Of a stretch of 14,451 bases of DNA, positions 6,116 to 14,451 are shown in pieces. Origin of the DNA: Lachnospiraceae bacterium (GTDB taxonomy: Bacteria; Bacillota; Clostridia; Lachnospirales; Lachnospiraceae). Numbering within the stretch: the stretch's first letter is position 1; each line of letters begins with the position of its first letter. The stretch spans positions 1 through 14,451 of the forward strand of contig JAFRCB010000357.1 in the NCBI GenBank assembly GCA_017404585.1, written 5' to 3'. The translations under genes and the position numbers were made by a program. Under the pieces are notes generated by a model that was given only the letters and a program-made list of their open reading frames with translations, did no database searches and was not told the DNA's origin.

Positions 6116-7663
6116 ATGATGAACAGAAAATGGCAGCGAATAGTCGTTGCGATAATTGCCGTTATTCTGGCTCTGACTATGATCCTCAGTCTGGTCATGC
6201 CCGCGATGGCATCTGATTTTGACAGCGCTGCAGAGAGTTCTGCAGCGTCTGTTGTCCCGGATGATGAGAGCAGCATTTCGGCTGCATCCGAGGACAGCGG
6301 AAAGTCGAAGGAACGCACGATCTTAAACGGCGTGACGATCGGCTCGGTCGATGTATCGGGCATGACAGGGGCAGAGGCCCAGGCAGCGGTCGAGGAGCAC
6401 ATAAATGAGATGGCTGCCTCAAAGCTGAAGATCCATGTGGGGGAAGATTATACCCGCGAGATCGCTATGTCTGATCTCGGATTCCACTGGACCAATACGC
6501 ATGTGGCCGAGGAAGCACTGGAGCTCGGTCAGAGCGGCAATATTATAGAAAGATACAAGATTAGAAAAGATACGGCCGAGGAGGGGAGAACATACCTCCT
6601 CGAAAAATCCTATGATACGGACACTGTAAGATACTTTATCGAGGAGATTGCCGACGAGGTGTATAAAAGTCCGGTGAGCAGCAAAATATCTGTCAATTCG
6701 GACGGGTCTCTCACGGTCACTCCCGGTTCGAACGGTATCGAAGTCGATCAGGACAGCTCCTACAGCCAGCTGAACGTCTATCTGAATTCCGGCTGGCAGA
6801 ACGGAGATCCGGAAATCACGCTGTCTTCGAAGACCCTTAAGCCGAGGGTCCCGGCAGATTCTCTGGACAAGGTCAAGGACGTCCTCGGAAGAGGCTGGAC
6901 AGACTACGGCGGCAGCTCAAACGCGCGCAGCAAGAATATCGAGAACGGCGTAAGCCTTATATCCGGCACGATCATCATGCCCGGAGATTCGTTCTCCCTG
7001 CTTGACCATGTAGTCCCCTTTACTGCAGAGAACGGCTATGCGCTTGCACCGTCAATCGCAGAGGGTTCACTTGTCGATACTTACGGCGGCGGCATCTGTC
7101 AGGTCGCGACGACACTTTATCTGGCCCTTCTTGATGCTGAGCTTCAGGTCGATGAGAGACATAACCATTCTATGATGGTAAGTTACATAGAAAAGTCCAA
7201 GGATGCCGCTATATCCGAGGACGGGGGAAAAGATCTTCAGTTCACCAATAATCTCGATGTGCCTATTTATATTTATGGGGAGGCGGATGACGGAGATCTG
7301 CGCTTTGTCATCTACGGCGCTGAGTACAGACCAAAGGACAGAGAAGTGACTTACGAGTCTAAAGTTACCCATACTGAAAAAGTGGAAGTCGTTATTAATA
7401 CGAGCGATGAGAAATATCTCGGCTACTTCGACTGTGTTTCGGGAGGCTCGGAAGGGATTGATGCTGAGCTGATCAAAACTGTGACCCAGGACGGAGAGAC
7501 CTACTCGGAGACAGTAAATACCAGCTACTATCCCATGCAGCCCTGCACATATGTGGTCGGTCTTAAATCTTCTGATGAGCAGGCCAGAGACAAGGTGGCC
7601 TCAGCGGCTTACACGCAGAAGATAGAAAAGGTAGAGAAAGCCCTGGCGGAGTGCGGGTATTGA
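6116..7663 (+). CDS. Secreted or membrane-anchored VanW-domain protein with PG_binding_4-like region
   Basis: A 515-residue envelope protein. The N-terminus is a short basic stretch and one hydrophobic helix (about 8-31) ending PAMAS, either a signal peptide or an anchor, followed by a Ser/Ala/Asp-rich linker. Residues about 70-245 resemble the PG_binding_4 peptidoglycan-associated domain. The VanW domain covers about 265-400, with its hallmarks MPGDSFSLLD, YALAPSI, VDTYGGGICQVATTLY (C328) and DERHNHS. The segment near 405-480 is beta-rich and could be a G5-like domain. VanW was named from vancomycin-resistance clusters but its biochemical role is unclear; this relative is a chromosomal housekeeping type and gives no evidence of resistance. 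The ATG at 6116 has GGAG eight bases upstream; a second ATG at 6119 is possible. It is 21 bases after glyA. Confidence 0.85.
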   Translation: MMNRKWQRIVVAIIAVILALTMILSLVMPAMASDFDSAAESSAASVVPDDESSISAASEDSGKSKERTILNGVTIGSVDVSGMTGAEAQAAVEEHINEMAASKLKIHVGEDYTREIAMSDLGFHWTNTHVAEEALELGQSGNIIERYKIRKDTAEEGRTYLLEKSYDTDTVRYFIEEIADEVYKSPVSSKISVNSDGSLTVTPGSNGIEVDQDSSYSQLNVYLNSGWQNGDPEITLSSKTLKPRVPADSLDKVKDVLGRGWTDYGGSSNARSKNIENGVSLISGTIIMPGDSFSLLDHVVPFTAENGYALAPSIAEGSLVDTYGGGICQVATTLYLALLDAELQVDERHNHSMMVSYIEKSKDAAISEDGGKDLQFTNNLDVPIYIYGEADDGDLRFVIYGAEYRPKDREVTYESKVTHTEKVEVVINTSDEKYLGYFDCVSGGSEGIDAELIKTVTQDGETYSETVNTSYYPMQPCTYVVGLKSSDEQARDKVASAAYTQKIEKVEKALAECGY

Positions 7664-7668
7664 CGCAT

Positions 7669-8220
7669 ATGAGCGAAAAAATATACGTCGTAAATACGAT
7701 TGCGCTGGGAGCGGCGGAATGGATACTTAATAACAGGAGAGAGGAACTTGAATCGTACTTTCCGTATCTCTTCGTGAAACGCGCTGAGGAGGCGGTAAAG
7801 TGCGATCTCTCACTCGTCGGAGAGTTTCCGGCATTCCTTGCGGAGAAATGTACATACGCAGAGGAAATCGGAGGGCAGGGTATACTGTCAGCCCTCTGGC
7901 GCATGGCGGAAGAGTTGAGTACGGGGCTTGAAATACGTCTCAGAGATATACCGATCAGGCAGGAGACGGTCGAAATCCTGGAGAGGTTCGATCTCAATCC
8001 TTATTATGCGCTGTCGGATGGCGCGTATCTTGCTGTTACCGGCCATGGCGGCGAACTCATGAAGGCTTCTCAAAGTGCAGGTCTCACCTGCGATGAGATC
8101 GGGGAGCTGAGACCGGGTATCGCGAGAACCGTGATAAACGGGGAGAGCGTCCGCTATCTGGACCGGCCGCAGCCGGAAGAATTGAATAAAGTGAAACAGT
8201 TCAGACAGGCTATTACGTAG
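7669..8220 (+). CDS. Short AIR synthase / HypE C-terminal-like protein
   Basis: A 183-residue protein resembling the C-terminal domain (PF02769-like) of the PurM/HypE/ThiL ATP-binding superfamily. Suggestive stretches are GGQGILSALWRMAEELSTGLEI, the family's GGv-aL-ela pattern in which GGQG stands for the usual glycine motif, then IPIRQETVEI, LNPYYALSDGAYLAV and VRYLDRPQPEEL. The N-terminal nucleotide-binding half is absent, so ATP-dependent activity is doubtful. Start choice: ATG at 7669 gives MSEKIYVV; in-frame GTG 7651 and TTG 7660 lie inside or across the end of the VanW-like gene, and no ribosome binding site is convincing, so translational coupling is likely. The last codons (QFRQAIT and stop) lie inside the repeat at 8195-8282, suggesting the 3' end was altered by it. 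The exact function is not known. Confidence 0.7.
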   Translation: MSEKIYVVNTIALGAAEWILNNRREELESYFPYLFVKRAEEAVKCDLSLVGEFPAFLAEKCTYAEEIGGQGILSALWRMAEELSTGLEIRLRDIPIRQETVEILERFDLNPYYALSDGAYLAVTGHGGELMKASQSAGLTCDEIGELRPGIARTVINGESVRYLDRPQPEELNKVKQFRQAIT

Positions 8221-8282
8221 TTCCTGAATTCGGTGTCAGCATCATCTTCATCGAAAAACGGAATATGCCTGTCTGAACTGTT
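8195..8282 (+). repeat. Dispersed repeat, copy 1, closed by a perfect 16-bp inverted repeat
   Basis: The left arm (8195-8210, AACAGTTCAGACAGGC) and right arm (8267-8282) are perfect reverse complements around 56 bases. Bases 8196-8260 align without a gap to 14366-14430: 16 identical bases, a variable middle of 28, then 21 identical bases (8240-8260). The copy contains the end and stop of the preceding gene and fills most of the gap between two convergent genes. It could act as a convergent transcription barrier, a MITE-like insertion or a small structured RNA. No transposase is present. Matching and pairing are directly visible; function is unknown. Confidence 0.85.
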
Positions 8283-8300
8283 GTTTAAAACAATGTTTTT
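8281..8300 (+). terminator. Weak terminator-like hairpin between convergent genes
   Basis: TTGTT (8281-8285) pairs with AACAA (8289-8293) around TAA, and TGTTTTT follows (8294-8300). It could help end the plus-strand glyA-VanW operon, perhaps together with the larger stem at 8195-8282. The stem is short and AU-rich, so the call is tentative. Confidence 0.35.
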
Positions 8301-8301
8301 A

Positions 8302-9708
8302 TCATGCCATCTCGAGTGTAAATATGAATTCGGTCCCAACGTTCTCCGTGCTGACGACGGAGATTGTCTGACCATGTGCGCTGATGATCTCCTTGACGAT
8401 AGAGAGCCCGAGACCTGTTCCCTGGCGGTCCCTGCCACGGGATGAATCGCTCTTATAGAAGCGGTCCCAGATCTTGGTAAGGTCGTCGCGTGCTATGCCG
8501 CAGCCCTCGTCTTTGACGGAGACTGCACATTTGCCCCTCTGGATGGTCGTCTCTACTTTGACTTCAGAATTTCTGTCGCTGAATTTGATTGCGTTATCGA
8601 GCAGGTTATAGATGACCTGCTCGATTTTTTCTCTGTCTCCTCTGACAAAGAGCTCGGTTCCGGTCAGCACCAGATTGATGCTGATTTTTTTCTTTCTGCA
8701 GCTGCCCTCGAACACGGCTGCCGTACTCTTTAGCATTGCATTGATGTCGAAGCGCGACATGTTGAGGGACGTTCTGTCCCTGTCCATGCTGTTGAGTTCA
8801 AGGATCGTGTTGGTCAGCTTATTCAGCCTCTCTGTCTCCTGAACGATGATCCCAAGGTATCTGTCATGCATCTCCGCCGGAATCGTACCGTCCAGCATGG
8901 CCTCTGAAAAACCTTTGATCGAGGTCAGCGGGGAGCGGAAATCATGGCTGACATTGGAGATGAAGTTCTTCTGATAGTCATTGTTCTTTCTGAGTTCGCC
9001 TGCCATGAGATTCAGCGTGTCTGCGAGGTATCCCATTTCATCGTGGCTCGTGACTTCAATTTTATGCCGCAGGTTGCCGGATGCAAATTCCTTCGCTCCG
9101 TCCATGATCTGCAGCATCGGTCGGTATGTCGTGAGCGCAAAGAAAAGCAGGATGAGAAATGAGAGACCGAAGTTCACGGCTGCAATGATCATCATGATCC
9201 TGACGGTCGAAAAGACTTCATCCCGGATCACTGTCATATCTTCGGTAATCGCTATGTAGCCTCTTACACGGACACCGCTCGTCACCGGGCAGATCACGCT
9301 CAGGCAATCATCCTGATATTCATCGTAAAATGTGCCTATTTCATATATTCCGGGACCGAAGGCTGCGTAATTGAATGATTCAATGACGTGAGACTTCTTC
9401 GGGTCGAAGGGAATGTCCGTGTTTATGATTTCCGTACCGTCCGTTGCGATTACCCTGATCACGGTCTCGTCCGCGTCGGCAATTACCCGTAAATTTTCAT
9501 AACTGTCTCTGAGATTCGCTGATTCGACAAAATATCTCACCCCATGGCCATCGGCAATGCGGGATGCCTCCGCGTACAAAGTGTCGGCTTCTGCCTTTAC
9601 GCGATTGTTTAACACTAACTGTCTGCCGAGTGTAGTCACGACGAGCAGGGAGAGGATAGCCAGGATCAGGTAAGCAAATATAAATTTCCAGTAAAGCGTT
9701 CTTCTCAT
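8302..9708 (-). CDS. Membrane sensor histidine kinase with HAMP domain
   Basis: Senses an unknown envelope signal and phosphorylates the response regulator encoded just upstream. The 468 residues show TM1 (about 8-28), an extracytoplasmic sensor region (about 30-165), TM2 (about 169-192), HAMP (about 193-245, with the DEMGYLAD motif), then HisKA with the phospho-accepting H255 in SNVSHDFRSPL. The ATPase domain has the N box EQVIYNLLDNAIKFS (N368, N372), G1 DEGCGIA (400-406), WDRFYKSD and G2 GTGLGL (430-435). All catalytic boxes are intact. The ATG has GGAG about eight bases upstream. The gene lies 25 bases after the response regulator and is last in the minus-strand operon, meeting the repeat at its 3' end. 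The sensor domain does not reveal the ligand. Confidence 0.94.
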   Translation of the reverse strand: MRRTLYWKFIFAYLILAILSLLVVTTLGRQLVLNNRVKAEADTLYAEASRIADGHGVRYFVESANLRDSYENLRVIADADETVIRVIATDGTEIINTDIPFDPKKSHVIESFNYAAFGPGIYEIGTFYDEYQDDCLSVICPVTSGVRVRGYIAITEDMTVIRDEVFSTVRIMMIIAAVNFGLSFLILLFFALTTYRPMLQIMDGAKEFASGNLRHKIEVTSHDEMGYLADTLNLMAGELRKNNDYQKNFISNVSHDFRSPLTSIKGFSEAMLDGTIPAEMHDRYLGIIVQETERLNKLTNTILELNSMDRDRTSLNMSRFDINAMLKSTAAVFEGSCRKKKISINLVLTGTELFVRGDREKIEQVIYNLLDNAIKFSDRNSEVKVETTIQRGKCAVSVKDEGCGIARDDLTKIWDRFYKSDSSRGRDRQGTGLGLSIVKEIISAHGQTISVVSTENVGTEFIFTLEMA

Positions 9709-9733
9709 GAAATATTCTCCGAAGGATCCGCGT

Positions 9734-10438
9734 TCATTTTACTTCGAACTTATAACCGATTCCCCACACTGTTCGGATCGCCCAGTTCTCATGATCGCTG
9801 ATCTTTTCCCTCAGACGCTTGATATGGACGTCCACGGTCCTTGTGTCGCCGATATATTCATAGCCCCAGATGTGGTCCAACAGCTGTTCGCGAGTGAAGA
9901 CCTGATTCGGCTGTGATGCCAGGAAGTAGAGGAGCTCCAGTTCCTTGGGAGGCATGACAAGCTCCCGTCCGTTGTAGGTGACTGAATAGTTGGTCTGATT
10001 GATCGTCAGATTAGGGTATTCTACGACCTTGATCTTCGGTTTCGGTTTCTCCGGGGCAGGTGCTGCCTTTCGGTAGCGGCGAAGTACAGCCTTGACCCGT
10101 GCTACGAGCTCCTTCGTGTCGAAGGGCTTTATCATATAATCATCTGCTCCCAGCTCGAGGCCGAGCACTTTGTCAAAGGTCTCTCCTTTTGCGGAGAGCA
10201 TGATGATCGGCGTATCTTTTTGTTTCCGTATCTCTCTGCACACTTCATATCCGTCTTTACCCGGAAGCATAAGGTCAAGAATGACCAGATCCGGCTCAAA
10301 GCTCACGAAGAGATCCAGAGCTTCATAGCCGTCCTCAGCGACCTTTGTCTCGAACATTTCTTTGATCAGATACAGTGAGATAATTTCTGCGATATTAGAA
10401 TCATCATCGACAATTAAAACTTTTTGTCTTTCAGCCAT
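9734..10438 (-). CDS. OmpR/PhoB-family response regulator
   Basis: DNA-binding regulator, the probable partner of the adjacent kinase. The 234-residue protein has a receiver domain with acidic pocket DDD (11-13), phospho-acceptor D55 in LVILDLMLPG, the LSAKGE switch region and K104 in YMIKPFD. A Pro/Lys-rich linker (about 124-140) joins the winged-helix domain, which carries LTINQTNYSVTYNGRELVMPPKELELLYFL, HIWGYEYIGDTRTVDVHIKRLREKI and IRTVWGIGYKFE. The start is set at the ATG (complement of 10436-10438), which gives MAERQKVLIVDDD after a GAAGG-type ribosome binding site; a longer frame reaches back into mutS2 and is unlikely. It sits 16 bases after the mutS2 stop. Targets cannot be told from this window. 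Confidence 0.95.
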   Translation of the reverse strand: MAERQKVLIVDDDSNIAEIISLYLIKEMFETKVAEDGYEALDLFVSFEPDLVILDLMLPGKDGYEVCREIRKQKDTPIIMLSAKGETFDKVLGLELGADDYMIKPFDTKELVARVKAVLRRYRKAAPAPEKPKPKIKVVEYPNLTINQTNYSVTYNGRELVMPPKELELLYFLASQPNQVFTREQLLDHIWGYEYIGDTRTVDVHIKRLREKISDHENWAIRTVWGIGYKFEVK

Positions 10439-10454
10439 AAGAAAACCTTCTCTC

Positions 10455-12830
10455 TTACTTGAGTTCTGCGATTGTGACACCCGCATCGCCCTCACCGTAT
10501 TCACCGAGGCGGAAAGTCTTGATATGTTTGTTGCGTTTCAAGTACTGCTGCACTCCCTTTCTGAGCGCGCCCGTGCCTTTGCCGTGGACGATCCGCACTG
10601 ACGGCAGATGCGCCATGTAAGCATTATCGATGAATTTTTCAAGTTCCATGCAGGCTTCGTCGACAGTCATCCCGAGCAGATTGATCTCAGTCGTGGCTGT
10701 CGATGACTTCTCCATTCTGAGCTTACCGGTCGAGCTCTTTTTGACGCCCGGCGCGGTGATCTCGACTTCATCGATTTTTTCGAGATCCGTAAGTTTTACT
10801 TTTGTCCTCATGATGCCAAGCATAACGAACAGATTGCCCTTTGAATCCGGTAGTGAATTGACGGTTCCCTTAAGATTCAGGCTGATGACTTTCACTGCGT
10901 CACCGACCTTGATGTCTTTGGCCGTCAGCGTGCCGGATTTGGACTTCTGATCATCGATGTCCGTGAGACTGCCGTTTAAATCGTTTATTTTTGCGCGAAG
11001 AGCCTGACGCTCTTTTTCCATATCCTTGCCGGAGGCAATACCGCCGTGTTTTGCGAAATAGCTGATCGTGCGGTCCGCGTAATCTTTCGCATCCTGAAGG
11101 ATCTTTCTGGCTTCGACCTGAGACTGGGCAATCAGCTTCTGCTTCTGCTCCGTGAGGTGGGCTTTCTGATATTCGAGGTCCTTTTTCAGGGCTTCGATAT
11201 CCCGGCGCATTCTCTCGGCATCTTCTTTTTCCTTTTCAAGTCCTGCCCGTTTGGATTCCAGATCGGAGATGACGTCCTCGAACGACTCTGCCTGATCGGA
11301 GAGCAGGGATTTTGCGTCCTCGATGATGTCCTCTGACATGCCGAGCTTTCTGGATATTGCAAATGCGTTGCTCTTGCCCGGTACTCCGATGAGAAGACGG
11401 TAGGTCGGGGAGAGTGTCGCGACATCGAATTCGCACGAAGCATTCTCGACACCGGGAGTCCGCAGCGCATAGACCTTGATCTCGGCATAATGGGTCGTTG
11501 CGATTGTTCGTATCCCCCTCTTGTGCAGGCTGTCAAGGATAGCTACGGCAAGAGCCGCTCCTTCCGTCGGGTCGGTACCGGCGCCGAGTTCGTCGAACAG
11601 GACCAGAGATCCCTCATCCGCTCTGGACAGGAAATCAACGACATTCGTCATGTGGGACGAGAAAGTTGAGAGGCTCTGCTCTATGCTCTGCTCATCTCCG
11701 ATATCGGCGTAGACTTCATTAAACAGCGCAATGCGGCTCCTGTCCGCCGCCGGAATATGGAGGCCTGACAGGGCCATCAGGGTGAGAAGACCGGTCGTCT
11801 TAAGTGTTACGGTCTTACCGCCGGTATTGGGACCTGTGATGACAAGCAGGTCGAACTGCTCTCCTATACGGATATCGATCGGTACGACTTTTTTCTTATC
11901 AATCAGCGGATGGCGGGCCTTTTTAATCTCAATGATCCCCTCGCTGTTGACAAGAGGCTTGGAAGCATTCTGCTCAATTGCAAGACTTGCCCTCGCGAAG
12001 ATGAAATCAAGCGATCTCATGATCTCGTAGTCGTACTTGATGGCTCCGTCGTACTCTGCCAGCATATCGGACAGCTTCGCGAGGATGACCTCGATCTCCT
12101 TCTGCTCGGCCAGTTCAAGCTCGCGGATCTCATTGTTCAGCTTGACGACAGACGCAGGCTCTATGAACAGAGTGCTGCCGGAAGAGCTCATATCGTGGAC
12201 GATGCCGCCGACGTTGGCCTTGTGCTCGACCTTGACCGGGACACAGTAGCGGCCGTCGCGTGTTGTTATGATGCTGTCCTGGAGGTAATCCTTGGAGTGC
12301 TGGGCGATGATCTTGTTGAGCTCGGAGTAAATGCGCTCTCCGGCTGACTTGATATTTCTGCGTATCTGTCTCAGTGTGCTCGACGCATTGTCGCTGACCT
12401 CGTCTTCAGAGACGATGCAGCGGCGGATCTCATTTGTAACGGACGGAATGGGATCGAGACCGTTAAAAAGGATCGTCAGGATATCATCGGGCTGGTCCTC
12501 CCGCTCCTTCCTGCCGTATGCGCGGACGAGGGACGCGTTCTCCAGGAGCTTGCAGATCTGAAGCAACTCACGGATGCCCAGCGCGCTGCCGAGCTGGAGG
12601 CGCAGAAGAGAGGCGTTCACGTCGACGGTGTGTCCGAAAGATATGCTGCCTTTTGCAAATATCCGCCCGACGGCTGCGGCTGTCTCCTCCTGCAGCGTCT
12701 CTATTTTCTCAATGTCCGTCAGAGGCGTGATCGCATGGCAGAGGGCCTTGCCGGGGGCGGAAGTGGCCCGCTCCTCGAGCAAGGTAACAATTTTATCATA
12801 TTCCAGTGTGTGTAATGCTTTCTCATTCAT
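10455..12830 (-). CDS. mutS2: MutS2 ATPase with C-terminal Smr domain
   Basis: MutS-related ATPase, linked in different species to suppression of recombination and, in Bacillus, to splitting collided ribosomes. The 791-residue protein is full length. The N-terminal core and clamp region occupy about 1-315. The ATPase has Walker A GPNTGGKT (333-340), the ST-rich loop near STFSSHM, Walker B LVLFDELGAGTDPTEG (409-424) and the ATTHY histidine. A coiled coil covers about 515-580, with a KOW-like segment near 640-680 and Smr at about 714-791. Smr keeps HGKGTGALR (749-757), but the usual nuclease-linked LDLRG motif reads INLLG (716-720). No MutS mismatch-recognition domain is present, as expected for MutS2. 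The ATG at 12828-12830 (complement) is preceded by AGGG at a rather long distance. It heads the operon with the two-component pair. Confidence 0.96.
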   Translation of the reverse strand: MNEKALHTLEYDKIVTLLEERATSAPGKALCHAITPLTDIEKIETLQEETAAAVGRIFAKGSISFGHTVDVNASLLRLQLGSALGIRELLQICKLLENASLVRAYGRKEREDQPDDILTILFNGLDPIPSVTNEIRRCIVSEDEVSDNASSTLRQIRRNIKSAGERIYSELNKIIAQHSKDYLQDSIITTRDGRYCVPVKVEHKANVGGIVHDMSSSGSTLFIEPASVVKLNNEIRELELAEQKEIEVILAKLSDMLAEYDGAIKYDYEIMRSLDFIFARASLAIEQNASKPLVNSEGIIEIKKARHPLIDKKKVVPIDIRIGEQFDLLVITGPNTGGKTVTLKTTGLLTLMALSGLHIPAADRSRIALFNEVYADIGDEQSIEQSLSTFSSHMTNVVDFLSRADEGSLVLFDELGAGTDPTEGAALAVAILDSLHKRGIRTIATTHYAEIKVYALRTPGVENASCEFDVATLSPTYRLLIGVPGKSNAFAISRKLGMSEDIIEDAKSLLSDQAESFEDVISDLESKRAGLEKEKEDAERMRRDIEALKKDLEYQKAHLTEQKQKLIAQSQVEARKILQDAKDYADRTISYFAKHGGIASGKDMEKERQALRAKINDLNGSLTDIDDQKSKSGTLTAKDIKVGDAVKVISLNLKGTVNSLPDSKGNLFVMLGIMRTKVKLTDLEKIDEVEITAPGVKKSSTGKLRMEKSSTATTEINLLGMTVDEACMELEKFIDNAYMAHLPSVRIVHGKGTGALRKGVQQYLKRNKHIKTFRLGEYGEGDAGVTIAELK

Positions 12831-12937
12831 ATTGTTATTTTACCCTAAAGTTGCGCCGTATAAAAGAGTTTCCTTTGTCTACCTTTACATCCCATTCATA
12901 AATTGTTCATATTCAAATGATAAACTAAAACTTGGTG

Positions 12938-12995
12938 TATAGTCTGAGCCTGCCTTTTGGCAAGACGGATCACAGGATCCGCATCGTCCGAAAAA
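12938..12995 (+). promoter_or_regulatory. Leader of the HtrA-like gene: possible -10 box and 6-bp hairpin
   Basis: A possible -10 box TATAGT lies at 12938-12943 with no good -35 partner. CGGATC (12966-12971) and GATCCG (12976-12981) form a perfect inverted repeat around ACAG, 14 bases before the ATG at 12996. No ribosome binding site lies at normal distance; the only AGGA (12974-12977) is partly in this hairpin. It may be an operator or a translational control element. The rest of the 165-base mutS2/htrA divergent gap is AT-rich and shows no other clear signal, although both genes must have promoters there. Confidence 0.4.
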
Positions 12996-14312
12996 ATGGA
13001 AGAGAACTTAAAAAGAAAAGACAACGATAACCCCGATGAAGAATACTCCTTTATAAAAGAGACGGTGAAAGATGTACCGGTCGATCCGAAAAAGAGGCGC
13101 ATGTATGTGCTCAAACTCGTTGTATCGGCTCTGGTATTCGGCCTTATAGCCGGTCTTACATGCTCGGCTGTTTTTAATATGCGGATGCGTCAGGCAGTCA
13201 GTGCCGTATCGATCCCGGATGACGAGGAGTACTACGAGGACATATCACAGGATACCACGGAATCGGATATGGCCGAGTCAGATGCGTCCGGTGAGGAGCA
13301 GCCCCCTATGGAGGAACTCACTGAGGAAGAAAAGACTGAGCTTGCGGTAGAAGATCTCGAGCGCTTTAACCGTGCCGTCAAGGCTGTTGCCGATGAGGTG
13401 AGGGCTTCTATGGTCACTGTGTCCGGCTATGAAGGGGCGGAAGCGTATTCTGACGGAATTGATGAAGCCGTCACATCAAGGAGCGGCATCATCATCGCAG
13501 ATAACGGTCAGAACCTTCTCATACTGACGGAACAGGACGCGGCGTTTGAGGCTGCGACGATCATGGTCACATTTGTCAACAATATTGCCATAGAGGGCAG
13601 CCTGGTGAGTCGTGACCCGGTAACCGGGCTGTGCGTCGTGCAGGTGTCCCTGCAGGCTGTTCCGGACAGTGTTCTCCATGCAGTCAGTATAGCGCAGCTC
13701 GGTACATCGTACGGGACAACGACCGGTACTACGGTGATTGCTGTGGGCTCACCGTGCGGCACAGAGCGTGCATTTGAGGTGGGGCGTGTCGCGGCAATGT
13801 CTCGAAAAGTGGTCGTGACCGACGGCGCGTATACAATGATCGATACGGACATCGCGGGAACGGAGACCGGCAGCGGAGTTCTTATCAACATGAAAGGTCA
13901 GGTCCTGGGAATCATAGCCCAGAAATATGTCCAGAAGGGATCTGACTGCATCGCGGTCATTCCGATCTCCCCGATCAAGAATCTTCTGGAGAGACTTTCA
14001 AACAATGAGAAGCTCTGCTATCTCGGCATCAGAGGGCAGGATGTCTCGACCGTCATGACAGAAGTGACCGGAGTGCCGACAGGTGTGTACGTCGTGAAGG
14101 CATTCGATGATTCCCCTGCCCAGCAGGCGGGAATCCAGCCGGGAGACGTCATCACGGCTATCGATGATACGAATATTACGTCACTGGCAGTCTTTGGTCA
14201 GAGGCTGGTCACAAAACAGCCGGGTGATGAGATCGTCATGACCGTGCAGAGATTCGGTGCAGGGGAATATGTGGAGGTCACCCTCCCGATGACGGTCGGA
14301 ACAAGAGAGTGA
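12996..14312 (+). CDS. Membrane-anchored HtrA/DegP-like protein with PDZ domain, probable pseudoprotease
   Basis: Architecture of the HtrA (S1C) family: a charged cytoplasmic N-terminus, one membrane helix (about 37-60), an acidic linker (about 75-120), a trypsin-like domain (about 125-335) and a PDZ domain (about 340-435) with GVYVVKAFDDSPAQQAGIQPGDVITAID. The fold is recognisable from SGIIIADNGQNLLILT, VIAVGSPCG, MIDTDIAG, LINMKGQVLGI and VIPISPIKNLL. The triad is not: ILTEQD replaces ILTNxHV (D181 at the His site), DPVTGLCVV replaces DPxTDLAVL (G211 at the Asp site) and TETGSGVLIN replaces NPGNSGGPLIN. It may bind misfolded or exported proteins, or a partner protease, without cutting. The ATG at 12996 is preferred; an in-frame TTG at 12957 would add 13 residues, and neither start has a good ribosome binding site. 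Confidence 0.85.
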   Translation: MEENLKRKDNDNPDEEYSFIKETVKDVPVDPKKRRMYVLKLVVSALVFGLIAGLTCSAVFNMRMRQAVSAVSIPDDEEYYEDISQDTTESDMAESDASGEEQPPMEELTEEEKTELAVEDLERFNRAVKAVADEVRASMVTVSGYEGAEAYSDGIDEAVTSRSGIIIADNGQNLLILTEQDAAFEAATIMVTFVNNIAIEGSLVSRDPVTGLCVVQVSLQAVPDSVLHAVSIAQLGTSYGTTTGTTVIAVGSPCGTERAFEVGRVAAMSRKVVVTDGAYTMIDTDIAGTETGSGVLINMKGQVLGIIAQKYVQKGSDCIAVIPISPIKNLLERLSNNEKLCYLGIRGQDVSTVMTEVTGVPTGVYVVKAFDDSPAQQAGIQPGDVITAIDDTNITSLAVFGQRLVTKQPGDEIVMTVQRFGAGEYVEVTLPMTVGTRE

Positions 14313-14315
14313 TAC

Positions 14316-14358
14316 TTGAATTTTACTTTCGACTTGCTATACTAAGTGGGAAGTAAAA
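14316..14358 (+). promoter_or_regulatory. 15-pair inverted repeat with promoter-like sequence in its loop
   Basis: Bases 14321-14335 pair with 14344-14358 (one G/G mismatch, one G-T pair) around the loop GCTATACT. No T run follows on either strand, so it is a poor intrinsic terminator. Across it lie TTGAAT (14316-14321) and TATACT (14338-14343) spaced 16 bases apart, the latter preceded by TGC as in an extended -10 box. If used, transcription would start near 14350, 16 bases before repeat copy 2. It could be a promoter for a small RNA, an operator, or a failed terminator after the htrA-like gene. Confidence 0.5.
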
Positions 14359-14365
14359 AAAGGTG

Positions 14366-14451
14366 ACAGTTCAGACAGGCTTCAACGAAGTTCCATAAAC
14401 CGGCGCAAACATCATCTTCATCGAAAAACGTATATCCTTCCCTGCGAGCTA
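14366..14451 (+). repeat. Dispersed repeat, copy 2 (cut by window edge)
   Basis: Bases 14366-14430 match copy 1 (8196-8260) at 53 of 65 positions with no gap, in the same orientation. Similarity stops after AAAAACG at 14430; the right inverted arm of copy 1 is absent from the remaining 21 bases, so this copy either lacks it or has a longer interior that ends beyond the window. The complementary strand is open from the window edge to a TAG at 14342-14344, but changes between the copies alter the encoded residues almost everywhere, so a conserved protein there is doubtful. Confidence 0.75.

What the first reader, a model, noticed from the sequence alone, without database searches (positions are those of the whole stretch)
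8195..14451. Two-copy dispersed repeat with conserved ends and a variable middle: possible unknown RNA or mobile element
Bases 8196-8260 and 14366-14430 align gaplessly with 53 of 65 identities. The first 16 and last 21 bases are identical and all 12 differences lie in the 28 bases between. Both copies sit directly after plus-strand genes in the same orientation. Identical blocks bounding a variable segment are unusual for a simple degenerate repeat and suggest the blocks are under selection or are recognised by an enzyme. I do not recognise it as a known RNA family.
Basis: seen in the sequence. Interest (0 to 1): 0.75.

Follow-up and report, generated by a model that had tools for sequence, protein, structure and literature searches.

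The report
Folded mobile repeat, IS66-type ends
The two look-alike stretches are a worn copy and a cut-off copy of a small non-coding jumping DNA element that folds into a long hairpin, occurs dozens to a hundred or more times in the genomes of some gut bacteria of one genus, and ends like IS66 transposons of that genus.

Summary
Both sites belong to one family of ~200-bp (long form ~255-bp) palindromic elements. Copy 1 (8193-8284) is an internal-deletion derivative (~120 bp lost); a relative has the full element at the same site. Copy 2 (14363-14451) is cut by the contig end; at the orthologous site in that relative the element is inverted. The family is a non-coding MITE: terminal inverted repeats GTAACAGTTCAGACAGGC, 8-bp target duplications (18 of 92 copies with at most 1 mismatch, 0.58 in shuffles), one clear empty site. 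Some IS66-family transposons of the genus share the first letters (GTAACTGTTCAGA) and the 8-bp duplications, so IS66-type mobilisation is the best account. The interior is a rod with strong covariation (39 of 63 pairs changed on both sides) and conserved internal loops. G-U and A-C mismatches show no consistent strand bias. The element reached no Rfam cut-off and was found in one Lachnospiraceae genus only. Whether the rod acts as RNA or DNA is open.

The parts
8193..8284 (+). Copy 1: element with an internal deletion of about 120 bp (ends GAAAC...GTTGT, consensus GTAAC...GTTAC)
   Evidence: R1 match 8194-8284, 35.2 bits; full-length element at the orthologous site in L173; fold z -7.4
8195..8210 (+). 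Left terminal inverted repeat arm of copy 1
   Evidence: pair I16, 100% complementary
8267..8282 (+). Right terminal inverted repeat arm of copy 1
   Evidence: pair I16
8240..8260 (+). Conserved 5' core strand CATCATCTTCATCGAAAAACG; the deletion junction lies at its 3' end and its pairing partner (GTTTTTCTCACGAAGATGGATG in full copies) is lost
14363..14451 (+). Copy 2: left part of a full-type element, cut by the contig end at 14451
   Evidence: its left flank matches L173 5965-6663, beyond which the element is reversed (R1 match L173 6667-6857 on the minus strand)
14363..14380 (+). Left terminal inverted repeat of copy 2 (GTGACAGTTCAGACAGGC)
   Evidence: sequence; family ends
14410..14430 (+). 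Conserved 5' core strand of copy 2
14431..14451 (+). Left strand of the covarying P4 stem and of the following CTGCGAG segment, cut off before the tip
   Evidence: sequence, against alignment A1
7651..8220 (+). ORF (AIR-synthase-related C-terminal domain) whose last codons and stop come from the left arm of copy 1
12957..14312 (+). Trypsin-like/PDZ protein gene that ends 50 bp before copy 2

Best explanation
Both sites are members of one non-autonomous transposon (MITE) family with IS66-type ends. Shown: 18-bp terminal inverted repeats, 8-bp target duplications, no transposase gene, intergenic copies, an empty site, and IS66-family transposons in the same genus with nearly the same terminal letters and the same duplication length. 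Inferred: an IS66-family transposase, supplied in trans now or in the past, recognises GT(A/T)AC-NN-TTCA at both ends and inserts the element with an 8-bp stagger. Shown: between the ends lies a long rod of stems and conserved internal loops whose stems covary and whose tip is freely replaced. Inferred (about 0.45): the rod is kept because it acts when transcribed from either strand, as an mRNA-end structure or double-strand-RNase target like NEMIS/ERIC; about 0.35: it is kept as a DNA hairpin (transposition substrate, or palindrome correction by template switching); the rest: a by-product.
For: 92 pattern hits against 0 control; 69 places of at least 100 bits with R1 in the own genome (my count of its rows). 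TSD: 18 of 92 copies with an 8-bp duplication at up to 1 mismatch, shuffles mean 0.58, maximum 3; 5 exact against 0.06; 0 at 9 bp. Empty site: L022 against G025 C7, gap 8 instead of 216. 0 of 69 copies inside genes in 1.13 Mb of G025 (my own simple gene caller). IS66 of the genus: four copies in G027 with GTAACTGTTCAGAACCCC at both ends, three of them with perfect 8-bp duplications; one in G035 with GTTACTATTCACAC / GTTACTGTTCACAG ends and CTTGGCGT on both sides; transposases match NCBIfam IS66 (221 bits, over the cut-off of 180; G035, 158 bits, below it). GTAAC(A/T)GTTCAGA: 12 of the first 13 letters shared with the G027 IS66. Covariation: 39 of 63 pairs changed on both sides, 0 of 500 shuffles as high; long form 18 of 56.
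Against: No IS66 transposase in G025 (97% complete) or G017, and the only PF03050 hit in the 65%-complete own genome is an IS256 transposase, so the three genomes richest in copies lack the presumed helper. G027, which holds the IS66 with the closest ends, has no R1 match. Of 20 IS66 loci looked at, 5 show such ends on both sides, 6 on one side, 9 on neither, among these the one in G020, which has 21 R2 matches. No longer relative with these ends and a transposase gene was found. 74 of 92 copies show no 8-bp duplication at that stringency, and three pairs of the positives (L141/L150, L104/L105, L027/L197) are probably one insertion each, seen in two genomes. A plain MITE does not explain why the interior is kept so strictly.
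Confidence: 0.8

Rival explanations
1. A true structured non-coding RNA family (one sense strand, own function) that merely hitch-hikes on transposon ends.
For: Rod with conserved internal loops and covariation over two forms; at 13 syntenic pairs the core strands are more conserved (0.95 and 0.91) than flanks (0.80 and 0.68) and arms (0.74); Clostridiales-1, an Rfam RNA family, is dispersed in the same genus.
Against: No consistent excess of G-U over A-C mismatches: tips 17 G-U and 27 A-C, arms 56 and 38. Orientation to the flanking genes is not clearly biased: 22 same, 32 opposite of 54. Two sites are inverted in place. No transcript data.
Confidence: 0.3
2. The stems are kept complementary by a mutational process (template switching within quasi-palindromes), not by selection, so the covariation says nothing about function.
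For: Mismatches are about symmetric between strands; tips are replaced wholesale by other hairpins; solo arms occur in tandem; in-place inversions.
Against: The internal loops, which such correction should erase, are kept in both forms.
Confidence: 0.3
3. REP/REPIN-like palindromes moved by a Y1 (RAYT) transposase, or attC-like integron sites.
For: Many intergenic palindromic copies, some inside larger palindromes.
Against: 8-bp target duplications and IS66-type ends, not expected for Y1 elements or attC (recalled). No search for a Y1 transposase was run.
Confidence: 0.03
4. Chance or simple degenerate repeat of two copies.
For: None after the genome search.
Confidence: 0.001

Closest known systems
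Bacterial MITEs with strong hairpins: Correia/NEMIS, ERIC, RUP (passages of PMC2229807; passages of PMC10969869)
   Same: Short (Correia/NEMIS ~107 and ~155 bp, ERIC 127 bp), TIRs, target duplications, no transposase gene, long stem-loop transcripts predicted; RUP was assigned to IS630-Spn1 by the same TIR argument
   Different: 8-bp duplication and IS66-type ends, while those three are listed with TA at their termini; conserved internal loops with covariation; interchangeable tip; found in one genus only
IS66 family insertion sequences
   Same: GT(A/T)A... ends and 8-bp direct repeats (8 nt read in PMC10017437, whose IS66 however ends GTCTGTG; GTAA ends read in PMC12888890; in-genus copies)
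   Different: No tnp genes; no likeness to the G027 IS seen beyond the first ~13 bases (by eye)
Clostridiales-1 RNA (Rfam RF01699)
   Same: Also a structured family dispersed in this genus (15 of 41 genomes searched have a match, 14 of the 15 in this genus); a relative of it sits inside some copies (L013, L028)
   Different: The element itself does not match its model; different ends and architecture
MITECca01 of Cardinium (passages of PMC9769881)
   Same: High-copy, mostly intergenic 240-bp MITE with a parental IS in the genome
   Different: IS982-derived; no conserved rod described in the passages seen

Membership tests
MITE | Short, no transposase gene | tested here: met
   ~200 or ~255 bp
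MITE | Terminal inverted repeats | tested here: met
MITE | Target-site duplication | tested here: met
   8 bp, 18 of 92 against 0.58 in shuffles
MITE | Dispersed copies and empty sites | tested here: met
   empty site L022/G025 C7
MITE | Parental or helper IS with matching ends | tested here: met
   IS66 in G027 and G035 of the same genus; but none in G000, G025, G017 and G027 lacks the element
IS66-type element | Ends GTAA/GTTA and 8-bp duplications | tested here: met
   for the family
IS66-type element | Mobilised by an IS66 transposase | not testable with these tools
   needs a transposition assay
IS66 insertion sequence proper | Carries an IS66 transposase gene | tested here: not met
   no such copy found in the stretches scanned
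Known Rfam RNA | Match over the gathering score | tested here: not met
Clostridiales-1 (RF01699) | Match over the gathering score of 48 | tested here: not met
   only inserts within copies match, 38.2 and 35.1 bits
Structured RNA gene | Covarying stems | tested here: met
   shuffles there do not keep relatedness
Structured RNA gene | Wobble pairs favoured on one strand | tested here: not met
   the P4 stem alone leans to A-C
Structured RNA gene | Transcript | not testable with these tools
   no RNA-seq
ERIC/NEMIS/RUP | TA at the termini | tested here: not met
   ends GTAAC with an 8-bp variable duplication; TA feature read
REP/RAYT element | Y1 transposase partner | not tested
   no search run

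The most novel reading that the evidence does not exclude
A mobile, orientation-independent structured nucleic acid: an IS66-type transposon skeleton that carries a conserved rod-shaped RNA (or single-stranded DNA) module with a swappable tip. A second family in the same genus, Clostridiales-1, filed in Rfam as an RNA gene, would be of the same kind, so that part of the orphan structured RNAs of gut Firmicutes would be transposon modules.
Probability: 0.3. Interest if true: 0.7.

Novelty: new variant of a known kind. Interest (0 to 1): 0.5.

Why it matters
It is a high-copy element with textbook covariation that nevertheless has a transposon's ends, no clear RNA strand and in-place inversions; covariation alone would have filed it as a new RNA family. 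It offers a natural series (173 distinct sequences, two forms, syntenic pairs between species) to separate RNA selection, DNA hairpin selection and palindrome correction. No IS66-derived MITE of Lachnospiraceae turned up in the paper searches (open-licence PMC only; most hits seen as listings).

Tried and rejected
Two-copy chance repeat: rejected. Rfam family: none for the element (the best weak match, a microRNA model at 21.8 bits against a cut-off of 117, is a generic long hairpin). Phage or plasmid origin: no match in viral contigs (exact 21-mer with one ambiguous base), plasmids or phages (one 202-bp copy as query). Autonomous copy with the same ends: none in the 1.13 Mb fetched of G025 or in the other loci held; one search's pairs enclose ORFs in which I recognised no transposase by eye. 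IS256 as parent: the L217 stretch has no match to the TIR at 4 mismatches. RNA-strand signature: the P4 stem alone suggested the antisense strand, but tips and arms cancel each other, so I dropped that idea. Terminator role: the scan of 8000-8500 gave no terminator at copy 1 (it only sees short-loop hairpins), and convergent sites are 2 of 67. Orientation bias: 22 against 32, not clear. Of 34 syntenic comparisons 28 are same-orientation, 4 lack the core, 1 holds both orientations, 1 is inverted. Loci were fetched because they carry the element, so shared sites are over-represented there.

Rows dropped before counts: one search found 65 copies with both cores; 2 with a core distance of 170 or more were not aligned (63); A1 left out one deleted and one tip-inserted copy (61); 93 with recognisable ends, 92 with long enough flanks; 139 distinct tips were caught by my pattern out of 173 distinct sequences; of 172 distinct arm pairs, badly paired ones were skipped; 13 pairs chosen from the comparisons; two of them (L073, L067) may be independent insertions. 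One search's 135 rows include places read on both strands; I counted 69 rows of at least 100 bits by hand. Searches scored at most 40, 8, 69 and 7 candidates per genome with strict filters, so weak copies may be missed; one search's 299 and one search's 391 genomes are samples. A1 was aligned by MAFFT, A3 fitted to the model.

Full report
Observation. The two stretches are as described: 53 of 65 identities, 16 and 21 identical end bases, 12 differences within 28. Copy 1 also has a perfect 16-bp inverted repeat at 8195-8210 / 8267-8282 and folds with z -7.4; the visible part of copy 2 alone does not fold better than shuffles. The window is the whole contig C237 of a 2.16-Mb, 361-contig genome that is 65% complete, so copy 2 is cut by the contig end.

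The family. In the own genome the repeat gives 85 blastn rows, and its conserved 20-mer 92 hits at up to 3 mismatches against 0 for the reversed control. I fetched the copies. 91 distinct left cores and 71 right cores pair into 65 copies with both; 61 were aligned as A1. The full element is ~200 bp: GTAACAGTTCAGACAGGCTG - loosely paired stretch - CCGGCGCAAACATCATCTTCATCGAAAAACG - P4 stem - CTGCGAGC - variable tip hairpin - GATCTCTCAG - P4 stem - CAATGTTTTTCTCACGAAGATGGATGCTTTGCTGCCGG - stretch - CAGCCTGTCTGAACTGTTAC. Model R1 gives 135 rows in the own genome, 69 of them of at least 100 bits; it lists copy 1 (35.2 bits) but not the cut-off copy 2.

Structure. RNAalifold pairs 43 columns, 22 with double changes. 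With the arms and the CCGGCG stem added, 91.7% of cells pair; 39 of 63 pairs have double changes (shuffled mean 22.1, 0 of 500 as high), covariation 0.231 against 0.114. In G004, G010, G020, G022, G033 and G035 a longer form (~255 bp) carries a further conserved tip; 18 of 56 core pairs have double changes. One of five measures (further pair types) did not exceed the shuffles for the long form (184 of 500). Part of this covariation could come from subfamilies or from palindrome correction.

Strand test. An RNA under selection should tolerate G-U but not A-C on its own strand. The tips (139 distinct) have 17 G-U and 27 A-C, the arms 56 and 38: no consistent bias. The P4 stem alone leans to A-C, but may hold few independent events. 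So the covariation does not point to one RNA strand.

Mobility. Of 92 copies with recognisable ends (own genome plus relatives), 18 have an 8-bp duplication at up to 1 mismatch, 5 of them exact (shuffles 0.58 and 0.06); 9-bp: 0. Three pairs of the positives are probably the same insertion in two genomes (L141/L150, L104/L105, L027/L197). With looser flank tests on the own genome alone the signal is weak. L022 has an empty orthologous site in G025. Of 34 syntenic comparisons 28 keep the element in the same orientation, 4 lack the core, 1 holds both orientations, 1 is inverted; copy 2 is a further inverted case (R1 match on the minus strand of L173). In 13 chosen syntenic pairs the core strands are 0.95 and 0.91 identical, arms 0.74, flanks 0.80 and 0.68: constraint, conversion or, in some, independent insertion; in L003/L155 the interior was exchanged.

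The helper. PF03050 has no hit in G025 and G017, and the G000 hit is an IS256 transposase. In G035 an IS66-type transposase (158 bits, below the curated cut-off of 180) lies between GTTACTATTCACACACT and GTTACTGTTCACAGTTT ends with CTTGGCGT on both sides. In G027 four IS66 copies end in GTAACTGTTCAGAACCCC on both sides, three with perfect 8-bp duplications. Of 20 IS66 loci looked at, 5 have such ends on both sides, 6 on one side, 9 on neither. G027 itself has no R1 match. Element ends: GTAACAGTTCAGACAGGC in G000, GTTACTATTCAGCTGCC in long forms of G020 and G022. 12 of the first 13 letters agree with the G027 IS66; the first 11 of the long form agree with the G035 one. The family rules were read in passages: 8-nt variable direct repeats of an IS66 element (whose own ends begin GTCTGTG) in PMC10017437; GTAA ends in PMC12888890. 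The same argument tied RUP to IS630-Spn1 (passages of PMC2229807). No autonomous copy was found.

Window copies. L173 (RGIG5770, Lachnospiraceae MAG, sheep ileum by its title) holds a full element at the site of copy 1; the window lacks about 120 bp there. The ORF 7651-8220 ends within the left arm; in L173 the stop comes at the start of the arm (by eye). No target duplication is recognisable at copy 1 (by eye).

Context and spread. In 1.13 Mb of G025, 69 copies: 0 inside genes; of 67 classified 54 tandem, 11 divergent, 2 convergent (gaps in general 444, 61, 60); 22 same, 32 opposite orientation (genes called by my own simple script). R1: 10 of 61 genomes, all 10 among the 37 of the window's genus, 0 of 24 others; family sample 1 of 299, the own genome; R2 6 of 41 and class sample 1 of 391, the own genome. 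That RUG genomes come from the rumen is recalled. Viral contigs, plasmids, phages: none.

Reading. A MITE family with IS66-type ends and an unusually constrained rod-like interior. What selects the rod is not shown. I lean to a transcript structure that works from either strand, with DNA-level hairpin selection or palindrome correction close behind. The papers seen here (listings and passages only) show no such family, but only open-licence PMC papers were searched.

Noticed in passing
L013 1590-1694, L028 1341-1464, also L245 8203-8496 and L191 119-412: A second structured repeat related to Clostridiales-1 (RF01699, below gathering in L013 and L028; likeness of L245 and L191 seen by eye) sits in the tip of some elements or replaces part of them.
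   Followed up: partly
RF01699 hits in 15 of 41 genomes, e.g. L278-L289, L350-L369: Clostridiales-1, filed in Rfam as an sRNA gene, is itself a dispersed multi-copy element in this genus (26 hits in G016), in several cases right after a stop codon and with partly complementary flanks (by eye); it may also be mobile. No duplication test was run on it.
   Followed up: partly
L008, L009, L011, L015, L039, L067, L161: Several elements lie in the middle of a larger palindrome GGGACGGTTCTTTTCACGTGA...TCACGTGAAAAGAACCGTCCC, apparently a different dispersed repeat.
   Followed up: no
L095, L081, L097, L020; G025 C3 66787-66904: Short tandem arrays of solo left arms (units of about 17-39 bp) next to elements, as expected from slippage at palindromes.
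   Followed up: no
window 7651-8220: The transposon arm supplies the last codons and the stop of a host protein; in L173 the stop falls at the start of the arm.
   Followed up: partly
window 14451; also the ends of contigs C130, C276, C114, C259, C132, C303: Contigs of this assembly end inside or next to the element, so the copy number is probably underestimated.
   Followed up: no
L338, L339, L341, L342 (G027): Four IS66-family copies with both ends in a single-contig genome of the same genus, a candidate helper for assays.
   Followed up: yes
window 8302-12830: Histidine kinase, response regulator and MutS2 genes on the minus strand; copy 1 lies in the convergent gap before the kinase gene's end.
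   Followed up: no
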